Assembly: GCA_930367215.1 (NCBI GenBank)
Contig: OV884057.1
Span: 202,667,621-202,731,620, forward strand
From: Pollenia angustigena
Taxonomy: Eukaryota; Arthropoda; Insecta; Diptera; Polleniidae
DNA length: 64,000 nt
Direction: 5' to 3'
The notes under the pieces were generated by a model that was not told the origin of the DNA, ran no database searches, and saw nothing but the letters and a program-made list of their open reading frames with translations. Made by a program: the position numbers and the translations under genes. This document shows positions 11,970-62,215 of this stretch, piece by piece (position 1 is the stretch's first letter; each line of letters starts with the position of its first letter).

Positions 11970-12440
11970 TTATTAATAAGATTTCTGTATGACGTGCTAA
12001 GTTCCCAATTTTTCATATTGGATAAATACACTGAAATTTATTGTTGAGGGAAAGCTAGCTTCTATGCGCATTTCACTGGTTGCTTAGGCCAGCTCATCAG
12101 GAAACCTTTTCCAAAGATTTTAGAAAAGCCAAAAATATTATAAAAATAAAACCCTAAAAGCGAATAAGTCTTACTTGTACCAATACCAAAGCTTAAACAA
12201 AACACCAACAATAAGGAGTGAGTTTATCTTTTCTTACATTCCCCTACAATTGGTTGGTTTTTTTCCGACTCGAATTGTAGTTGTAAGTGGGTTAAAAGAA
12301 AAACCAAAATTAAAAGACAAACTTCTTCATTCTATTGTCTTCGTAAGAAAACAACAAAAAAAAAAAACCATTTTTTTTTGCACGGGCACATGCAAGTATA
12401 TTATCAAAGTTATTTTTGGGTATACAAAATTAATTATTAA
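11970..12440 (-). repeat. Dispersed repeat, copy 2
   Basis: Inverted relative of 8655-9130. Shared blocks include CACTGGTTGCTTAGGCCAG, GAATTGTAGTTGTAAGTGGG and TTATCAAAGTTATTTTTGGG. Non-coding; an apparent frame of about 90 codons across it is not protein-like. Confidence 0.55.
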
Positions 12441-12649: not shown

Positions 12650-13222
12650 TTGAAATTTTGCTCTGAGCCTTTGGTTAGCTCAATTAAGAAAAATATAAAG
12701 TTTCATCAAAATTGGCCACGCCCTCCACCCCCCGCCCATAGAACCCAAAATTTTTTTTTGGCCCAAAGTTTTTGAAATTTCGCTCTGAGCCTTTATTTAG
12801 CTCAATTAAGAAAAATATAAAGTTTCATCGAAATTGGCCACGCCCTCCACCCACCGCCCATAGAACCCAAAATTTTTTTTTGGCCCAAAGTTTTTGAAAT
12901 TTAGCGCTGAGCCTTTATTTAGCTCAATTAAGTAAAATATAAAGTTTCATCGAAATTGGCCACGCCCTCCACCCACCGCCCATAGAACCCAAAATTTTTT
13001 TTTGGCCCAAAGTTTTTGAAATTTAGCGCTGAGCCTTTATTTAGCTCAATTAAGTAAAATATAAAGTTTCATCGAAATTGGCCACGCCCTCCACCCACCG
13101 CCCATAGAACCCAAAATTTTTTTTTGGCCCAAAGTTTTTGAAATTTAGCGCTGAGCCTTTATTTAGCTCAATTAAGTAAAATATAAAGTTTCATCAAAAT
13201 TGACCACGCCCTCTACCCACCC
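12650..13222. repeat. 122-bp tandem array inside Transib
   Basis: Five units with exact 122-bp spacing: CCACGCCCTCC starts at 12716, 12838, 12960, 13082 and 13204. Each unit carries CCGCCCATAGAACCC, a T-run, GGCCCAAAGTTTTTGAAATT and AGCTCAATTAAG. The central units are nearly identical and the outer ones diverge, as expected from unequal exchange. The array lies between the left end and the 3' end of the transposase gene. Confidence 0.9.
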
Positions 13223-13296: not shown

Positions 13297-15222
13297 TTAT
13301 TCATCAATTATCATTTCTTTTACTACATCATCTAGTTCCAAAATATGTTTACGTGGTTGACGTCTTATACTACTTATATAGGGATCAGATGATGCAAGCA
13401 AACGATGCAAAACATCAGTATTTGTTGCAGTTCTACTACATTTTCTGGAAAACATTAATCTATAATTTCTGTAATCCTTATTACGTGCTTCTTCCGCTTC
13501 CTCGGAGAGCATGCCTATAGGGAGCACTGCTGCTTCAATTATGTCATTTCCATGTATCAATACTTTATGGACAGTAGCTGGCATGAAGTACCAATTGTAT
13601 TTACGAACGAATAGCTCAGCAGTATCCCACGAATATTTCTTAAACTTCCCCGTATCAATTTTTTGCCCACATGTAATTATTTGGAGAATAATTCGGAAGC
13701 GATCTATTAGTTCTTCACTAATACCTGTTATATCTGCTACGAGAGCAGGATTCGAAAAGAAACGCCTTGAAGTATTTCCGTCATTCGACGACCCAGTTCC
13801 TTGTTGTACAGTATCCACTCGCAAGTTCATGCGTTCTTTAAATGCTGCTTGAATACGCTGTTTGTTTTCTTGTTTTAATATCTTATTTTTGGATTCAATT
13901 GCAGACCACTTTTGAAAAGGCATATTATAAGATATATGGAGTATGCACTCCATAAACTTTATTCGAGCGTGTAATGATGAAATACCTAATTTAAAAGCTT
14001 CACTATCAATGGTTTTTGTTGATATTATATCCAAATGGTTCATTTCAGAGGGCTTCGCTTTACAAATATAGCATACGGCTGCTGAAGCAGTATTTGTAAC
14101 TGTCTGAGCCGTTTTGCCATCTAGCATCGTGAACACTAAATTGTGTGTTACATTGAATTGTTTGCCGCATACTATAACAGTCGTATTTCCTAAAGCGGTA
14201 ATTTCGGACTTTATTTTCTCAACAACAGTTAAGACTTTTTCTTTAGTCTCCTTAGCGAATTCGAAAGAAATTGGACGACAATATCTTGTTGATGATGGAC
14301 TACTGTTACGCCAGTATTCATGTTCAGAGGTTGCTCGTAAACTTAAGGGCACCATCGATACTAATAGCAGGTTCTTGTCAGTAACATCAGGTACTAAACT
14401 TTGATTGTACTCTGAATGTCCAGAAGAGCCATCGCAACCCCATTTTGACATAAGAGTGCAATTCAAATTGACCATATTATTAATATTTTCGTGTGAAAAA
14501 CTTTCAAATAAACGCTTAGTGGTGTGATCCATTAAACTTTGCAAATTTACTGAGGCTTCTTTTTCTGATATTTTAACTTCACTAGGATAACACTTTTTCT
14601 TCTCATCTAGTACCTTTGCATACGGAGGTAAAATATTGTATCCCTCTTTATGCAAAACATATTTTATAGTTTCATACTGATACTTTGTTAACTCTGCATC
14701 TAGTAACAACGCCAGCGCAGTTGCGGGAGGAATATATGATTGCGATTTTAAATTTGAGCCTGCTAATGCACTTGCCATTTCTAAATGTTGTTTGCTGTAC
14801 TGGGACGCTAAATCAGCAGCTTTGTACCTTTTACTACGATCAGCGCAATCGCCGAATTCCTTAGCTGGCCTTCCAATTTTTGTTGAACAACTAGGTTGCT
14901 CATCAGCAAGCGATACTTCAAATATATCTAAAAATTTTCAATTATATTCAAAGTACACATTAATTATTTTGTTTTGAAACGTACTTTTTAGCCAAGTGTA
15001 ATTTTTCTCAAAGAAATAAGATTTGTTTCTGTGGGATTCGGCCCAACGTTTAAAAAAGTGACTAAGAAATCGCTTTTGAACTGATTTTTTCACAATTTGA
15101 ATTTCATTAATAGTAAGCACCATGTTTTTTGTTTTTATGAAATCAGTTAATAAATCCACATTATTATTGCAATTTATAAGTTCCTTGCACAATTCACTAT
15201 ATGAAACACAAAATGAACCCAT
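13297..15222 (-). CDS. Transib transposase (RAG1-core relative), two exons
   Basis: Catalyses DNA cut-and-paste of the surrounding element in the nucleus. Exon 1 is 15222-14985 and exon 2 is 14927-13297. Removing the 57-nt intron (14984-14928) gives 1,869 nt, or 622 residues plus stop, with no break; unspliced, one TGA at 14938-14940 interrupts the same frame. Motifs in the spliced protein: D245 in KWGCDGSSGHS, D349 in FTMLDGK, and E559 in SEEAEEARNK, which align by eye with the RAG1 catalytic D600, D708 and E962. C365 and C368 in VCYICKAK and H533 and H538 in VHKVLIHG match the RAG1 zinc site. SSLHARIKFMECILHISY is a typical Transib motif. The start is the first ATG of the long frame. The length suits the family. 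Family identity is strong; activity and splicing are inferred. Confidence 0.9.
14928..14984 (-). other. Predicted 57-nt intron of the Transib gene
   Basis: The donor is A|GTACGT and the acceptor TTTTTAG|AT, with AT-rich interior and the only in-frame stop of the gene. The length is typical for short fly introns. Splicing joins ...NYTWLK to NIFEVSLADEQPS without a frame change. The alternative is a single nonsense mutation, but the good splice sites make an intron more likely. Confidence 0.75.
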
Positions 15223-17599: not shown

Positions 17600-18190
17600 G
17601 ACTGGAAATCACGCTGTTAAATTTCTTGATGATCCGTCCATAATTTACCCTAAGCCCCGTATAAACAATTCTCCCGGAAAACAGTTTGGTACGCCTAAAA
17701 CCGTAAAAAATTACGCACGTCACAGTTTTTTAGTACTAGAAATAACACTGTGAAATTTCGTGACGATCGGTCCATAATTTACCATAGGCCCCATATAAAC
17801 CCTACTACCGTAAAACAGTTTAGTACGCCTTAAACCGTAAAAAATAATGCAATCATAACAAATTTTGGCTCGTCACAGTTTTATAAGACTATAAATGATA
17901 CTGTGAAATTTCGGGAAGATCGGTACATAATTTACCCTAGGCCCCATAGAAACCCTTCTCCCGGAAAACAGTTTAGTACACCTAAAACCATAATTAATAA
18001 TGCTATCATAACAGAAATTGGTACGTCACAGTTTTAAAGGAGTAGAAATGACGCTGTGAAATTTCGTGATGATCGGTCCATAATTTACCCTAGGCCCCAT
18101 ATAAACCCTACTACCGGAAAACAGTTTAGTCGCCTAAAACCATAAATTATAACAAATCGTCACAGTTTAAGATAATAATAACATCATACA
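17600..18190 (+). repeat. Central tandem array of HINE B
   Basis: About four diverged units of roughly 140-150 bp, each with (G/A)ATC(C/G)GTCCATAATTTACC, GGAAAACAGTTTAGTACGCC and CGTCACAGTTTTA. Homologous to the larger array of copy C. Confidence 0.7.
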
Positions 18191-29689: not shown

Positions 29690-29855
29690 TTTTTTAAAGG
29701 ATAAAATTAGATTTTTGAGAAAAAAGTACTTTTTAGGATGTACACTTTTATGATATAAAATCCTTTTTTAAAAATAAACTTGTTATGATTTTTTTCCTTT
29801 TAAAGAAAAAGTACCTTTTTCAGAAGAAGTACCTTTTTAAGAAAAAGTACCTTTC
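29690..29855. repeat. Degenerate 18-bp AAGTACCTTTTT minisatellite
   Basis: Units such as AGAAAAAGTACCTTTTTA recur at about 18 bp. The array continues after the inserted hammerhead repeat (30569-31090), so that repeat interrupts it. Confidence 0.55.
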
Positions 29856-30347
29856 GATCCCCAGCCACGTCAGGAATGAAAGATTATCAATAACAATTTT
29901 AATTAATTTTCATGTTGTAAAATTCCTTTCTTCATAAAAATAATTTAATGAAAAATTAAATTTCATGAACTTAAGCCTAATTAAGAATATTAAAAATTTG
30001 GATTAAAAACCATAAATAGTTCAACAAAATAACCACAATACTAATTATTGTTAAAGCTAAGGCACGAGCTCTATGTGTACATTTGTCCTTCAAGTTGTGC
30101 TAAAAAAGGTCAACAGAAAGGAAAAAGACAAAATGAAAAAACAAAAAATGTACTTGGACTTCAAGAAAAATTCTTGACAAAAGTACGAAAAAACAGAAGT
30201 AAGGAAAAAAAACATGTAAAATCAATTAAAATGGATAATCCTTCAGGAAAGCAAATTTCGATCTACCAAATGTTAGAATACAATTTGGTTTAAGGATTGA
30301 TGTTTGACTATTGACGTCAGCAGTCGTCGATGGCTGCGGGTATAAAA

Positions 30348-30408
30348 CGGCAAATCCATCTGAGGAGATTGAGTGGTTGCAATCGAAACATGTCATGGTA
30401 ACCTGCCG
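30348..30408 (+). ncRNA. Type I hammerhead ribozyme, locus 1
   Basis: In order: stem I strand CGGCA-AAT-CCAT, core CTGAGGA (CUGANGA), stem II GATTG-loop-CAATC, core GAA, stem III AC-AT-GT, cleavage C at 30394, stem I return ATGG-TAACC-TGCCG. All conserved core positions are met. The two-base stem III with self-complementary ACATGT is typical of animal type I hammerheads, which may act as dimers. Self-cleavage is predicted, not shown. Confidence 0.8.
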
Positions 30409-30413
30409 GCCGG

Positions 30414-30424
30414 GGTTCGAGCCC
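30414..30424 (+). promoter_or_regulatory. Candidate pol III B box
   Basis: GGTTCGAGCCC inside a tRNA TPsiC-arm-like hairpin (GGGGTTCGAGCCCC). A weak A-box-like segment (TGAGTGGTTG) lies in hammerhead stem-loop II about 42 nt upstream. This suggests internal pol III transcription, as in other hammerhead SINE-like repeats. Confidence 0.45.
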
Positions 30425-30568
30425 CAGCCACGTCAAGAATGAAAGATTATCAATAACAATTTTAATTAATTTTCATGTTGTAAAATTCCTTTCTTCATAA
30501 AAATAATTTAATGAAAAATTAAATTTCATGAACTTAAGCCTAATTAAGAATATTAAAAATTTGGATTA

Positions 30569-34681: not shown

Positions 34682-35190
34682 TAAGAATTCTTCTGGAAGT
34701 CCAAAGTACATTTGTTGTTTTTTTTTTTTTTTTTTGTTTGTACTTTGGACTTCAAGAAGAATTCTTGACAAAAGTACGAGAAAACAGAAGTAAGGAAAAC
34801 AACATGTTAAATCAATAGAAATTGATAATCATTCAGAAAAGCAAATTTCGATCTACCAAAGGTTAAAATACAGTTTGGTTTAAGGATTGATGTTTGACTA
34901 TTGACGTCAGCAGTCGTCGATGGCTGCGAGTGTAAGAAGGCAAATCCATCTGAAGAGATCGAGTGGTTGCGATCGAAACATGTCATGGTAACCTGCCGGC
35001 CAGGGTTCGAGCCCCAGCCACGGTCAGGAATGAAAGATTATCAATAACAATTTTAATTAATTTTCATGTTGTAAAATTCCCTTCTTCATAAAACTAATTT
35101 AATTAAAATTAAATTTGATGAAATTAAAAATATTGAAAATTTGGATTAAAACCCATAAATAGTTCAGCAAAATAACCACAACACTAATTA
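34682..35190 (+). mobile_element. Retrozyme-like hammerhead repeat, locus 2
   Basis: One 5'-truncated unit in plus orientation from TACTTTGGACTTCAAG (34741), through a hammerhead (34938-34998) and a B box, to ACTAATTATTA. It is preceded by an inverted copy of its own 5' segment (34684-34710) across a poly-T spacer, a 5' inversion. Non-coding. Confidence 0.7.
34938..34998 (+). ncRNA. Type I hammerhead ribozyme, locus 2
   Basis: Core CTGAAGA, stem II GATCG/CGATC, GAAAC-AT-GTC with cleavage C at 34984, stem I CCAT/ATGG and GGCA/TGCC. Compared with locus 1, stem II has a compensatory T-A to C-G change that keeps pairing. One outer stem I pair is lost. Confidence 0.8.
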
Positions 35191-45359: not shown

Positions 45360-48300
45360 TATACCCTCCACCACAATAAGTTGTGAAGAGGGTAAACTAA
45401 GTTTGTCATTTCATTTGCAACTTTTTTATTATTCGTCTCAGACCCCATAAAGTATATATAATCTGGCTCCTTAAGTGATTTTCAGTCGATTTAGCCATGT
45501 CCGTCTGTCTGTCTGTCCGTCTGTTGAAAACATGCTCACTTTCGAAAAACTCAAAAGAAATGTAAAAGCTTGGTGTCAAATTACTTGTAGTTATCCTAAG
45601 CAGTTTGGGATTGAAATCCAGCAAAATCGGTTCACTAGGATCAGAGCTATGAATCAAAATGTTGAACCACCACCTCAAAAAATTGATAATTTTGTTACAA
45701 AAAGTAACATAAATGGTGGAAAAATGAACGGAATGATATAAGATTTTGCAAAAATTTGTTTCAGTCAACTGAAAATCACGCTGTTAAATTTCGCGAAGAT
45801 CCGTTCATAATTTACCTTAGGCCCCATATAAGCCCTACTTCCGGAAAACAGTTTAGTAAGCTTAAAACCCTAATTAATAATGCTATCATTACAAATCTAA
45901 GTAAATAACAGTTTCATAAGACTTAAATAATACTATAAAATTTCGTGAAGATCGGTCCATAATTTACCCTAGGCCTCATATAAACCCTACTACCGGAAAA
46001 CAGTTTAGTACGCCTAAAATCATAACTAATAATGCTATCATAACAAAATTAGGTACATCACAGTTTTATGGAACTAGAAATAAGATTATGAAATTTTGTG
46101 AAGATCGGTCCATTATTTACCCTAGGCCCCATATAAACCCTACTACCGGAAAACTATTTAGAACGCCTAAAATCATAATTGATAATGCTATCATAACAAA
46201 ATTTAGTACATCACAGTTTTATAGGACTAGAAACAAGACTGTAAGATTTCGTGAAGAGCGGTCCATAATTTACTCCAAGCCCCATATAAACCCTACTACC
46301 GAAAAACAGTTTAGTACGCCTAAAATCAAAATTAATAATGCTATCATAACAAAATTAGGTACATCACAGTTTTATGGAACTAGAAATAAGATTATGAAAT
46401 TTTGTGAAGATCGGTCCATTATTTACCATAGGCTCCATATAAACCCTACTACCGAAAAACAGTTTAGTACGCCTAAAATCAAAATTAATAATGCTATCAT
46501 AACAAAATTAGGTACATCACAGTTTTATGGAACTAGAAATAAGATTATGAAATTTTGTGAAGATCGGTCCATTATTTACCATAGGCTCCATATAAACCCT
46601 ACTACCGGAAAACAGTTTAGTACGCCTAAAATCAAAATTAATAATGCTATCATAACAAAATTAGGTAAATTACAGTTTCATAAGACTGTAAAATTTCGTT
46701 AAGATCGGTCCATAATTTACCCTAGGCCCCATATAAACCCTACTACCGGAAAACTATTTAGTACTCCTAAAATCATAATTGATAATGCTATCATAACAAA
46801 ATTTAGTACATCACAGTTTTATAGGACTAGAAACAAGATTGTAAAATTTCGTGAAGATCGGTCCATAATTTACTCCAAGCCCCATATAAACCCTACTACC
46901 GAAAAACAGTTTAGTACGCCTAAAATCAAAATTAATAATGCTATCATAACAAAATTAGGTACATCACAGTTTTATGGAACTAGAAATAAGATTATGAAAT
47001 TTTGTGAAGATCGGTCCATTATTTACCATAGGCTCCATATAAACCCTACTACCGGAAAACAGTTTAGTATGCCTAAAATCAAAATTAATAATGCTATCAT
47101 AACAAAATTAGGTAAATTACAGTTTCATAAGACTGTAAAATTTCGTTAAGATCGGTCCATAATTTACCCTAGGCCCCATATAAATCCTACTACCGGAAAA
47201 CTATTTAGTACTCCTAAAATCATAATTGATAATGCTATCATAACAAAATTTAGTACATCACAGTTTTATAGGACTAGAAACAAGATTGTAAAATTTCGTG
47301 AAGATCGGTCCATAATTTACTCCAAGCCCCATATAAACCCTACTACCGAAAAACAGTTTAGTACGCCTAAAATCAAAATTAATAATGCTATCATAACAAA
47401 ATTAGGTACATCACAGTTTTATGGAACTAGAAATAAGATTATGAAATTTTGTGAAGATCGGTCCATTATTTACCATAGGCTCCATATAAACCCTACTACC
47501 GGAAAACAGTTTAGTACGCCTAAAATCAAAATTAATAATGCTATCATAACAAAATTAGGTAAATTACAGTTTCATAAGACTGTAAAATTTCGTGAAGATC
47601 GGTCCATAATTTACCCTAGGCTCCATATAAACCCTACTACCGGAAAACTATTTAGTACGCCTAAAATCATAAGTGATAATGCTATCATAACAAAATTTAG
47701 TACATCACAGTTTTATAGGACTAGAAACAAGATTGTAAAATTTCGTGAAGATCGGTCCATAATTTACTCCAAGCCCCATATAAACCCTACTACCGAAAAA
47801 CAGTTTAGTACGCCTGAAATCATAATTGATAATGCTATCATAACAAAATCTGGTACAGTACAGTTTATAGGACTAGAAATAACACTATAAAATTTTGTGA
47901 AGATCGGACCATTATTTAACATAGGACCAATTTAAGCCCTACTCCCGGAAAACAGTTTAGTACGCCTAAAACCGTACAAAATAATGCTATCAGAATAAAA
48001 TTTAATATTTCAAAGTTTTATATTACTAAAAATCACTCTAATAAATTTCGTGATGATCGGTCCATAATTTACTATAGACCTCATATAAAGCCCACTCTGG
48101 TATAATAATTTAATACGCCTAAAACCGTAGCAAATATAGATATTGCGGTAAACTTTCTTCCAACTTAGCTTCATATGGCCAGAACAAATGTTGTGCAATT
48201 TTGTGATATACGGTCCACAATAACCCTAAGATCCATTTAAAGCAGCCTTCTGAATTCAACGCTAAAACTAATTTATGTCTTTTAAGACCAGAAATCACTC

Positions 48301-60851: not shown

Positions 60852-61331
60852 TTTTAGTACTAATAATTAGTATTGTGGTTATTTTGTTGAACTATTTATG
60901 GTTTTTAATCCAAATTTTTAATATTTTTAATTAGGCTTAAGTTCATGAAATTTAATTTTTATTAAATTATTTTTGTGAAGAAAGGAATTTTTACAACATG
61001 AAAATTAATTAAAATTGTTATTGATAATCTTTCATTCTTGACGTGGCTCGGGCTCGAACCCTGGCCGGCAGGTTAAGCACAACTTGAAGGACAAATGTAC
61101 ACATAGAGCTCGTGCCTTAGCTTTAACAATAATTAGTATTGTGGTTATTTTGTTGAACTATTTATGGTTTTTAATCCAAATTTTTAATATTTTTAATTAG
61201 GCTTAAGTTCATGAAATTAAATTTTTATTAAATTATTTTTGTGAAGAAAGGAATTTTTACAACATGAAAATTAATTAAAATTGTTATTGATAATCTTTCA
61301 TTCTTGACGTGGCTCGGGCTCGAACCCTGGC

Positions 61332-61392
61332 CGGCAGGTTACCATGACATGTTTCGATCGCAACCACTCGATCTCCTCAGATGGATTTGCCG
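61332..61392 (-). ncRNA. Type I hammerhead ribozyme, locus 3 unit 1
   Basis: Minus strand: CGGCA-AAT-CCAT, CTGAGGA, GATCG-loop-CGATC, GAAAC-AT-GTC, ATGG-TAACC-TGCCG. All core and stem positions match; cleavage is predicted between 61346 and 61345. The best-conserved copy. Confidence 0.85.
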
Positions 61393-61894
61393 TCTTACAC
61401 TCGCAGCCATCGACGACTGCTGACGTCACTAGTCAAACATCAATCCTTAAACCAAATTGTATTTTAACATTTGGTAGATCGAAATTTGCTTTCCTGAATG
61501 ATTATCCATTTTAATTGATTTTACATGTTTTTTCCTTTACTTCTGTTTTTTCGTACTTTCGTCAAGAATTTTTCTTGAAGTCCAAGTACATTTTTTGTTT
61601 TTTCACTTTGTCTTTCTCTTTTCTGTTGACCTTTTTCAGCACAACTTGAAGGACAAATGTACACATAGAGCTCGTGCCTTAGCTTTAACAATAATTAGTA
61701 TTGTGGTTATTTTGTTGAACTATTTATGGGTTTTAATCCAAATTTTTAATATTTTTAATTAGGCTTAAGTTCATGAAATTTAATTTTTATTAAATTATTT
61801 TTGTGAAGAAAGGAATTTTTTACAACATGGAAATTAATTAAAATTGTTATTGATAATCTTTCATTCTTGACGTGGCTCGGGCTCGAACCCTGGC

Positions 61895-61955
61895 CGGCAG
61901 GTTACCATGACATGTTTCGATCGCAACCACTCGATCTCCTCAGATGGATTTGTCG
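61895..61955 (-). ncRNA. Type I hammerhead ribozyme, locus 3 unit 2
   Basis: Same as unit 1 except CGACA in place of CGGCA, which weakens one outer stem I pair. Cleavage is predicted between 61909 and 61908; cutting at both sites would release a 563-nt RNA. Confidence 0.83.
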
Positions 61956-62215
61956 TCTTACACTCGCAGCCATCGACGACTGCTGACGTCACTAGTCAAA
62001 CATCAATCCTTAAACCAAATTGTATTTTAACATTTGGTAGATCGAAATTTGCTTTCCTGAATGATTATCCATTTTAATTGATTTTACATGTTTTTTCCTT
62101 TAAAAAAAACAGAAGTAAAATTCCTTTCTTCACAAAAATAATTTAATAAAAATTAAATTTCATGAACTTAAGCCTAATTAAAAATATTAAAAATTTGGAT
62201 TAATGTTTTAGTACT

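What the first reader, a model, noticed from the sequence alone, without database searches (positions are those of the whole stretch)
60862..62205. Retrozyme-like family: 563-bp tandem units each carrying a hammerhead ribozyme
Seen: three loci (29856-30568, 34682-35190, 60862-62205) share a non-coding unit whose tandem period is 563 bp at two independent loci. Every unit not truncated or deleted contains CUGANGA, stem II, GAAA, a 2-bp stem III and GUC in the right order, plus a two-part stem I. Known: hammerheads occur in animal retrozymes, Penelope-like elements, schistosome Sm-alpha SINE-like repeats and the cave-cricket pDo500 satellite. Inference: transcripts self-cleave into 563-nt monomers that may circularise and be reverse transcribed in trans. 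I know of no such family described in flies, but could not search.
Basis: partly seen in the sequence, partly recalled or inferred. Interest (0 to 1): 0.92.

Follow-up and report, generated by a model that had tools for sequence, protein, structure and literature searches.

The report
Hammerhead retrozyme with Penelope footprint
A non-coding mobile repeat, present in tens of thousands of copies in a fly genome, carries a predicted self-cutting RNA motif and inserts with the footprint of Penelope retrotransposons, which suggests which enzyme copies this kind of element.

Summary
Four hammerhead cores lie in a 563-bp unit at the three loci; shuffled windows average 0.017 hits. The window's genome has 31,489 places matching the core with up to 3 mismatches. 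Two subfamilies and an older relative (68% identical) keep the core while stems I and II change by compensation. Rfam's hammerhead models nevertheless find nothing.

New here: (1) stem III is a loopless palindrome, ACAUGU, so cleavage probably needs two copies; (2) insertions are dispersed, 11 of 21 with target duplications of 10-18 bp (control 4 of 400), and two-armed ones are head-to-head; (3) outer ends are internal to the unit: one fixed at ~214-221, the other shorter, in 16 of 16 two-armed insertions scored by eye. This is the published footprint of Penelope-like elements (PLEs). The genome also has PLEs with long open frames, and the one PLE insertion read at both ends has the same footprint.

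Best reading: a non-autonomous retrozyme copied by a PLE enzyme. Self-cleavage, circular RNA and the enzyme's identity are inferred, not shown. New variant of a known kind.

The parts
60862..62203 (-). Retrozyme insertion C: minus-sense tandem units (62102-60862) plus an inverted piece at its right end
   Evidence: BLAST of the unit against the window; boundaries
61346..61908 (-). One complete 563-bp unit from predicted cleavage site to predicted cleavage site
   Evidence: GC 0.327
61909..61943 (-). Hammerhead core; predicted cleavage 3' of the C at 61909
   Evidence: outer stem I weakened here by G to A (GACA); 84.5 bits with my own model
61346..61380 (-). Hammerhead core; predicted cleavage 3' of the C at 61346
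   Evidence: (86.4 bits, own model)
62117..62203 (+). Inverted piece of the unit (positions 90-176): the short outer end of a head-to-head insertion
   Evidence: 100% identity over 87 bp
60852..60861 (.). Left target-site duplication TTTTAGTACT
62206..62215 (.). Right target-site duplication TTTTAGTACT
29853..30568 (+). Retrozyme copy A, one hammerhead, right end at unit 175 (short end)
   Evidence: no target duplication of 10 bp or more
30360..30394 (+). Hammerhead core of copy A (stem II GATTG/CAATC)
34683..35190 (+). Retrozyme copy B; 34683-34750 is an inverted piece
   Evidence: no target duplication of 10 bp or more
34950..34984 (+). Hammerhead core of copy B (stem II GATCG/CGATC)
61317..61327 (-). 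B-box-like GGTTCGAGCCC just 3' of the ribozyme (also at 61879-61889 and 61050-61060 on '-', 30414-30424 and 35004-35014 on '+')
   Evidence: read by eye; pol III consensus recalled; promoter activity untested; ARAGORN finds no tRNA in the window

Best explanation
A non-autonomous retrozyme. Tandem units are transcribed in the ribozyme sense, possibly by RNA polymerase III from boxes flanking the ribozyme. In a transcript with two or more units, two hammerheads pair through the palindrome ACAUGU and cleave after GUC, giving 563-nt monomers; a lone monomer lacks a closed stem III and stays whole. The monomer may be circularised by a host ligase. A Penelope-like protein cuts both strands of AT-rich DNA and starts reverse transcription inside the RNA: from one DNA end at a fixed site (unit ~214-221, after TACTAA), from the other usually 38-54 nt upstream. 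Each cDNA can run past the unit boundary and round again, and the two cDNAs meet head-to-head between target duplications. Shown here: cores, compensatory changes, copy number, array and end anatomy, target duplications, PLEs with long open frames in the same genome, one PLE insertion with the same footprint. Inferred: cleavage, dimer requirement, circle, pol III promoter, and which enzyme does it.
For: Cores far above chance. 31,489 genome places, reversed-pattern control 0. On seven hand-picked sequences 98.4% of cells pair, 5 of 9 pairs change on both sides, covariation 0.550 against at most 0.169 for slid partners. In 57 core matches of window and fetched loci the variable stem II pair is T-A 37 and C-G 20, never mixed. 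In 100 listed copies, 11 adjacent '-+' pairs and 0 '+-' within 2.5 kb. 16 of 16 two-armed insertions with both ends in the 3' zone have exactly one long end (by eye). Target duplications of 10 bp or more in 11 of 21 insertions against 4 of 400 controls. Opposite arms of one insertion: median identity 100% (21 pairs, 6 insertions) against 97.4 and 98.5 between insertions. PLE enzyme PAc cuts and extends both strands and starts at two adjacent internal RNA sites that define the tail (PMC11167929); typical Penelope copies have a head-to-head inverted pLTR, a one-sided tail and short target duplications (PMC3846280 passages). PLEs with open frames of 832 aa or more in 26 of 150 scored places; a PLE insertion on contig 3 is head-to-head with ends 39 bp apart and a 13-bp duplication.
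Against: No Rfam hammerhead match. The hammerhead is not the minimum-energy fold of a monomer, nor is the double hammerhead the co-fold minimum (-27.4, -24.6, -23.2 against -35.0, -34.4, -31.4). No RNA or cleavage data. 10 of 21 insertions show no duplication of 10 bp, and the 10-bp one of L047 is nearly all T. The target duplications here reach 18 bp while the PLE passages give 8-10 bp. Opposite-arm identity is low in two pairs (L032 92.5, L035 87.4). Some units have lost the GAAA box and cleavage site by a 24-nt deletion. Only one PLE insertion could be read at both ends; two further stretches fetched for ends (L054, L058) did not show them. For the PLE PAc, ribozyme cleavage was not needed for insertion in vitro.
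Confidence: 0.72

Rival explanations
1. The template is a linear multimer transcribed from a genomic array, not a circle; the ribozyme is a minor or dispensable part of transposition.
For: Arrays of up to 13 units exist, so multimeric transcripts are possible; PAc inserts without ribozyme cleavage in vitro (PMC11167929); units lacking the cleavage site sit inside arrays.
Against: Monomeric circles are the abundant form of other animal retrozymes (PMC7229834). Compensatory changes imply selection on the ribozyme. None of my data separates circle from multimer directly.
Confidence: 0.3
2. A tRNA-related SINE moved by a LINE enzyme, with 5' inversions by twin priming.
For: B box after the ribozyme and, in a divergent copy, an A box before it; 13-15-bp target duplications; inverted 5' parts.
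Against: No poly(A) or fixed microsatellite end; tandem units; two kinds of internal end with one long end per two-armed insertion, which matches PLEs of the same genome. No LINE was tested as a partner.
Confidence: 0.12
3. Ordinary satellite DNA spread by unequal exchange; the hammerhead is a relic.
For: Head-to-tail arrays at a fixed period (41 of 43 same-strand spacings 560-582 bp); Rfam negative.
Against: 24 of 46 clusters among the listed copies hold a single core; target duplications; head-to-head arms with fixed ends; covariation.
Confidence: 0.06
4. The unit is itself a shortened PLE (its pLTR), that is, an internal-deletion derivative of an autonomous PLE.
For: Same insertion footprint; weak colinear similarity around the end region to one PLE: shuffle fraction 0.0045 and 0.0105 against L051.
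Against: Against L052 the fractions are 0.14 and 0.19, and 0.017 to 0.98 in a stricter test. The apparent continuation of a PLE frame into the unit at L037 is an insertion: the PLE units L051 and L052 have another C-terminus. Only a few PLE pLTRs were read.
Confidence: 0.2

Closest known systems
Non-LTR retrozymes of animals (Cervera and de la Pena 2020, PMC7229834; parts 1-4 of 6 read)
   Same: Type I hammerhead per unit, short AT-rich tandem units without coding, target duplications, thousands of copies; PLEs proposed there as mobiliser
   Different: Unit of 561-567 bp against the 150-450 bp reported there; loopless palindromic stem III; head-to-head arms and a one-sided tail, not mentioned in the parts I read; circles shown there, not tested here
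Newt and axolotl satellite hammerheads (PMC7229834; PMC6155905 passages)
   Same: Very weak stem III with palindrome, thought to act as dimers, two-part stem I
   Different: Newt-type stem III is a single pair with a palindromic tetraloop; here the palindrome has no loop at all
Penelope-like elements (PMC11167929 parts 1-2 of 4; PMC3846280 passages)
   Same: Head-to-head inverted repeats, tail on one side, internal start of reverse transcription, target duplications, hammerheads
   Different: No protein coding in the unit; no convincing sequence homology to the PLE units read here
SM-alpha SINE-like repeats of schistosomes (Ferbeyre 1998, recalled, not held; PMC8490949 passages)
   Same: Dispersed short elements with a hammerhead; pol III promoter recalled
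   Different: Other phylum; closed stem III (recalled); tail signature not examined
Type III hammerheads of flies (PMC7936874 passages)
   Same: Hammerheads in dipteran genomes, housefly included
   Different: Other topology (type III, stem III open), related to delta-like agents

Membership tests
Hammerhead ribozyme, type I | CUGANGA and GAAA boxes, NUH cleavage site and three helices with stem I open | tested here: met
   stem III only as a palindrome (dimer)
Hammerhead ribozyme, type I | Compensatory changes in the helices | tested here: met
   stems I and II, (7 hand-picked sequences; 57 core matches)
Hammerhead ribozyme, type I | Match to Rfam hammerhead models | tested here: not met
   I treat this as a limit of models built on closed stem III, without a positive control
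Hammerhead ribozyme, type I | Self-cleavage | not testable with these tools
   no wet work possible
Non-LTR retrozyme | Short tandem units with a type I hammerhead, no coding, low GC | tested here: met
   (GC 0.327); frames of the unit full of stops
Non-LTR retrozyme | Unit size 150-450 bp as reported | tested here: not met
   561-567 bp in most arrays; a size range, not an essential feature
Non-LTR retrozyme | Expressed as linear and circular RNA | not testable with these tools
   no RNA data at hand
Penelope-like element | Reverse transcriptase with or without GIY-YIG endonuclease | tested here: not met
   unit has no such frame; so it is at most a non-autonomous passenger
Penelope-like element | Head-to-head arms, one-sided tail, target duplication | tested here: met
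   same in one PLE of this genome
tRNA-related SINE | pol III A and B boxes | tested here: inconclusive
   B box clear by eye; A box clear only in the divergent copy; no activity test

The most novel reading that the evidence does not exclude
A circular retrozyme RNA is the template for two-sided reverse transcription by a Penelope enzyme: both ends of the cut target prime inside the RNA at two start zones about 38-54 nt apart, one each; each cDNA can run round the circle, and they join head-to-head. The loopless palindromic stem III is a safety catch that lets multimers cleave but leaves the monomer circle whole, which would explain how such circles escape their own ribozyme.
Probability: 0.45. 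Interest if true: 0.85.

Novelty: new variant of a known kind. Interest (0 to 1): 0.72.

Why it matters
How animal retrozymes are mobilised is open: the 2020 paper names PLEs only as a strong candidate (PMC7229834). Here genomic copies record both ends of insertion events and match the two-start-site biochemistry of a PLE enzyme (PMC11167929), in a genome that also holds PLEs with long open frames. That makes the question testable with one protein and one RNA. The same paper also leaves open why monomeric circles do not re-cleave; a stem III that forms only between two copies would be a simple answer. I found no description of such a family in flies in eight paper searches, in a library without most subscription papers.

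Tried and rejected
Rejected: that the unit codes the C-terminus of a PLE protein. At L037 the PLE endonuclease frame runs on into a unit, but PLE units L051 and L052 have another C-terminus and the PLE sequence resumes after the unit, so L037 is a PLE copy with a retrozyme inserted and about 50 bp of target lost. Rejected: selection against pol III terminators; the few T runs of the sense strand follow from its composition. Rejected by eye: type III topology, for which I saw no matching cleavage site. Inconclusive: sequence homology of the unit with the PLE start region. Left open: the second hammerhead-like site at 12063-12100; its genome search did not complete. A first DNA search of the genome with a 100-base piece returned nothing, because that tool skips very common words. 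A PDB search with the PLE reverse-transcriptase piece gave nothing useful; Pfam gave RVT_1 for that piece below its cut-off (19.6 against 29.6 bits) and nothing for the endonuclease piece, which I name GIY-YIG by eye. Look-ups of PMC108972, PMC110794, PMC5785218 and PMC2941103 found them not held.

Full report
Check of the observation. The three loci share one unit, and the third holds two predicted cleavage sites exactly 563 bp apart. A strict descriptor finds four cores, at 30360-30394(+), 34950-34984(+), 61943-61909(-) and 61380-61346(-), and one unrelated site at 12100-12063(-); 60 dinucleotide shuffles of the window give a mean of 0.017 hits. Stem I is two-part, CCAU/AUGG and GGCA/UGCC (the latter broken by one change in the 61909 copy), with UAACC on the 3' side between the parts.

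Rfam. No hammerhead family reaches its gathering score in the window, nor E 10 around the loci, nor E 1 in six fetched loci including arrays, the divergent copy and PLE units. I think it reflects the missing closed stem III, but I had no positive control.

Copies. A 35-base core pattern with up to three mismatches has 15,866 + 15,623 places, and none when read backwards. The organism is a fly by inference: named relatives of a PLE reverse transcriptase of this genome come from Haematobia irritans and Musca autumnalis, at 46-63% identity.

Compensation. Subfamily 1 has CCAU/AUGG and GAUCG/CGAUC; subfamily 2 has CCCU/AGGG and GAUUG/CAAUC; two copies mix CCAU/AUGG with GAUUG/CAAUC. A copy 68-69% identical (L045:5811-6870) has, by eye, stem I GAUCUU/AAGAUU, outer stem GAACUC/GGGUUC and stem II AGAAA/UUUCU with a U-U at its base, around the same CUGANGA...GAAACAUGU core and NUA at the cleavage site. 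On seven distinct hand-picked sequences 98.4% of cells pair, five of nine pairs change on both sides, and the covariation score is 0.550 against at most 0.169 when partners are slid. In 57 core matches of the window and the fetched loci (overlap of L045 and L046 removed; the pattern fixes the rest of the core) the variable stem II pair is T-A 37 times and C-G 20 times, never mixed; in stem I a few copies break a pair. My own model finds 72 matches at E 5 or better over window and 20 loci, 61 of them at 74 bits or more; it was built from these types, so this is not independent, and L045 and L046 overlap, so at least two matches are counted twice. Four matches at 25.6 or 18.4 bits are deletion variants; three of them (one in L033, two in L034) share a 24-nt deletion that removes GAAA and the cleavage site.

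Anatomy of insertions. Units lie head-to-tail: 41 of 43 same-strand spacings among the first 100 listed copies are 560-582 bp. Those copies form 46 clusters, 24 with a single core. Two-armed clusters are head-to-head: 11 adjacent '-+' pairs and no '+-' pair within 2.5 kb. Outer ends are internal to the unit. One is fixed after ...CACAATACTAA (unit ~214-221, the long end). The other is shorter and variable. By eye, sixteen two-armed insertions have both outer ends in this 3' zone (L032, L034, L035, L036, L038, L039, L040, L041, L042, two in L045, L046, L047, L048, L050 and window C), and all sixteen have exactly one long end; of the fifteen that align to the two reference units, the short end lies at 163-181 in ten and at 89-155 in five. 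Two more two-armed insertions (L031, window B) have one long end and an inverted piece ending at 406 or 354. One-armed, truncated or interrupted copies (L033, the first in L035, L037, L043, L044, L049, window A) were left out of this count; L045:9398 is the same insertion as L046. Target duplications of 10 bp or more occur in 11 of the 21 insertions that I gave to the test, against 4 of 400 random pairs; L033, L044, the first in L035 and the divergent copy were not given. One of the 11 (L047) is nearly all T. Opposite arms of one insertion are nearly identical (median 100%, 21 pairs from six insertions; lowest 87.4 in L035 and 92.5 in L032) against medians of 97.4 and 98.5 between insertions, as expected if both arms were copied from one RNA.

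Penelope link. A purified PLE protein cuts and extends both strands of AT-rich DNA and starts reverse transcription at two adjacent sites inside the RNA; the stretch between them is the PLE 'tail' (PMC11167929, parts 1 and 2 of 4 read). Typical Penelope copies have an inverted, most often head-to-head pLTR, a tail of about 31 bp on one side and target duplications of 8-10 bp (PMC3846280, passages). The retrozyme insertions look the same, with a 38-54-bp tail where the short end lies at 163-181. The same genome holds PLEs: 150 places scored of 4,443 candidates; by eye 26 of the 150 lie in open frames of 832 aa or more, and some form head-to-head arrays with a period of about 2.9 kb. One PLE insertion on contig 3 was read at both ends: head-to-head, ends 39 bp apart on the unit (L051 1433 and 1472), 13-bp duplication. 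Two other PLE ends fall at L051 1477 and 1481; two further stretches (L054, L058) did not show the expected end. Sequence similarity around the start sites is weak: shuffle fractions 0.0045 and 0.0105 for two units against L051, 0.14 and 0.19 against L052, and 0.017 to 0.98 in a stricter test. So the footprint is shared; common ancestry of the RNAs is not shown.

Mechanism of cleavage. The hammerhead is not the minimum-energy fold of one copy. Two copies can form a nested double hammerhead sharing a 6-bp stem III at -27.4, -24.6 and -23.2 kcal/mol, above co-fold minima of -35.0, -34.4 and -31.4; the intermolecular ACAUGU helix itself is part of the minimum for subfamily 2 and the divergent copy. 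Dimeric cleavage is reported for newt and axolotl (PMC7229834; PMC6155905 passages), and palindromic stem III sequences that allow dimers for other hammerheads (PMC3088659, one passage). I infer the same here. Protein help is an alternative: the ribozyme of the PLE PAc cleaved only with its protein.

Transcription. GGTTCGAGCCC follows the ribozyme in the window copies; the divergent copy has GGTTCAAATCC after it and TGGTGCAGTGG before it, so the ribozyme would sit between pol III boxes A and B (consensus recalled). In the main subfamilies the A box is unclear. Promoter activity is untested.

Novelty. Eight paper searches list no fly retrozyme; PMC7229834 names insects only as a group. PMC7936874 reports type III hammerheads in flies (passages). 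PMC7761336 has only passing mentions of insects (passages). The library lacks most subscription papers, so an earlier description is possible.

Noticed in passing
window 12063-12100 (-): A second, unrelated hammerhead-like site: CTGATGA, stem II GCTGG/CCAGT, GAAA, loopless palindromic stem III ATGCGCAT, stem I of 6 bp and a further 5-bp GGAAA/TTTCC outside the descriptor. No Rfam match; nine or more genome searches for it did not complete.
   Followed up: partly
L051 around 1332, L052 around 1301, L053 (reverse strand): PLE units of this genome carry their own hammerhead-like motif, CTGAAGA-A-stem II-GAAATAT, with different stem II sequences (GATTTCC/GGAAATC, GGCAC/GTGCC) and a 4-nt palindrome AUAU in place of stem III (by eye).
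   Followed up: partly
L033 6990-7046, L034 5034-5090 and 6518-6574: Units that lack 24 nt, including GAAA and the cleavage site, inside arrays of intact units.
   Followed up: partly
L037 3330-5133: A PLE copy (frames broken) with a retrozyme inserted near the end of its ORF and about 50 bp of target missing.
   Followed up: yes
L058 (C2:242768170-242768470): The stretch expected to hold a PLE end instead holds a piece of a subfamily 2 retrozyme unit on the reverse strand (read by eye): another case of the two elements side by side.
   Followed up: no
window 45781-48124, 17601-18146, 12650-13221: Unrelated tandem arrays with periods of about 153 bp (two places) and 122 bp.
   Followed up: no
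window 13300-14937 (-): A 546-aa open frame with 394 relatives at E 0.001 or better among the candidates scored, many with Pfam PF26100; one Helicoverpa relative bears a V(D)J recombination-activating name in UniRef. Probably a transposon gene.
   Followed up: no
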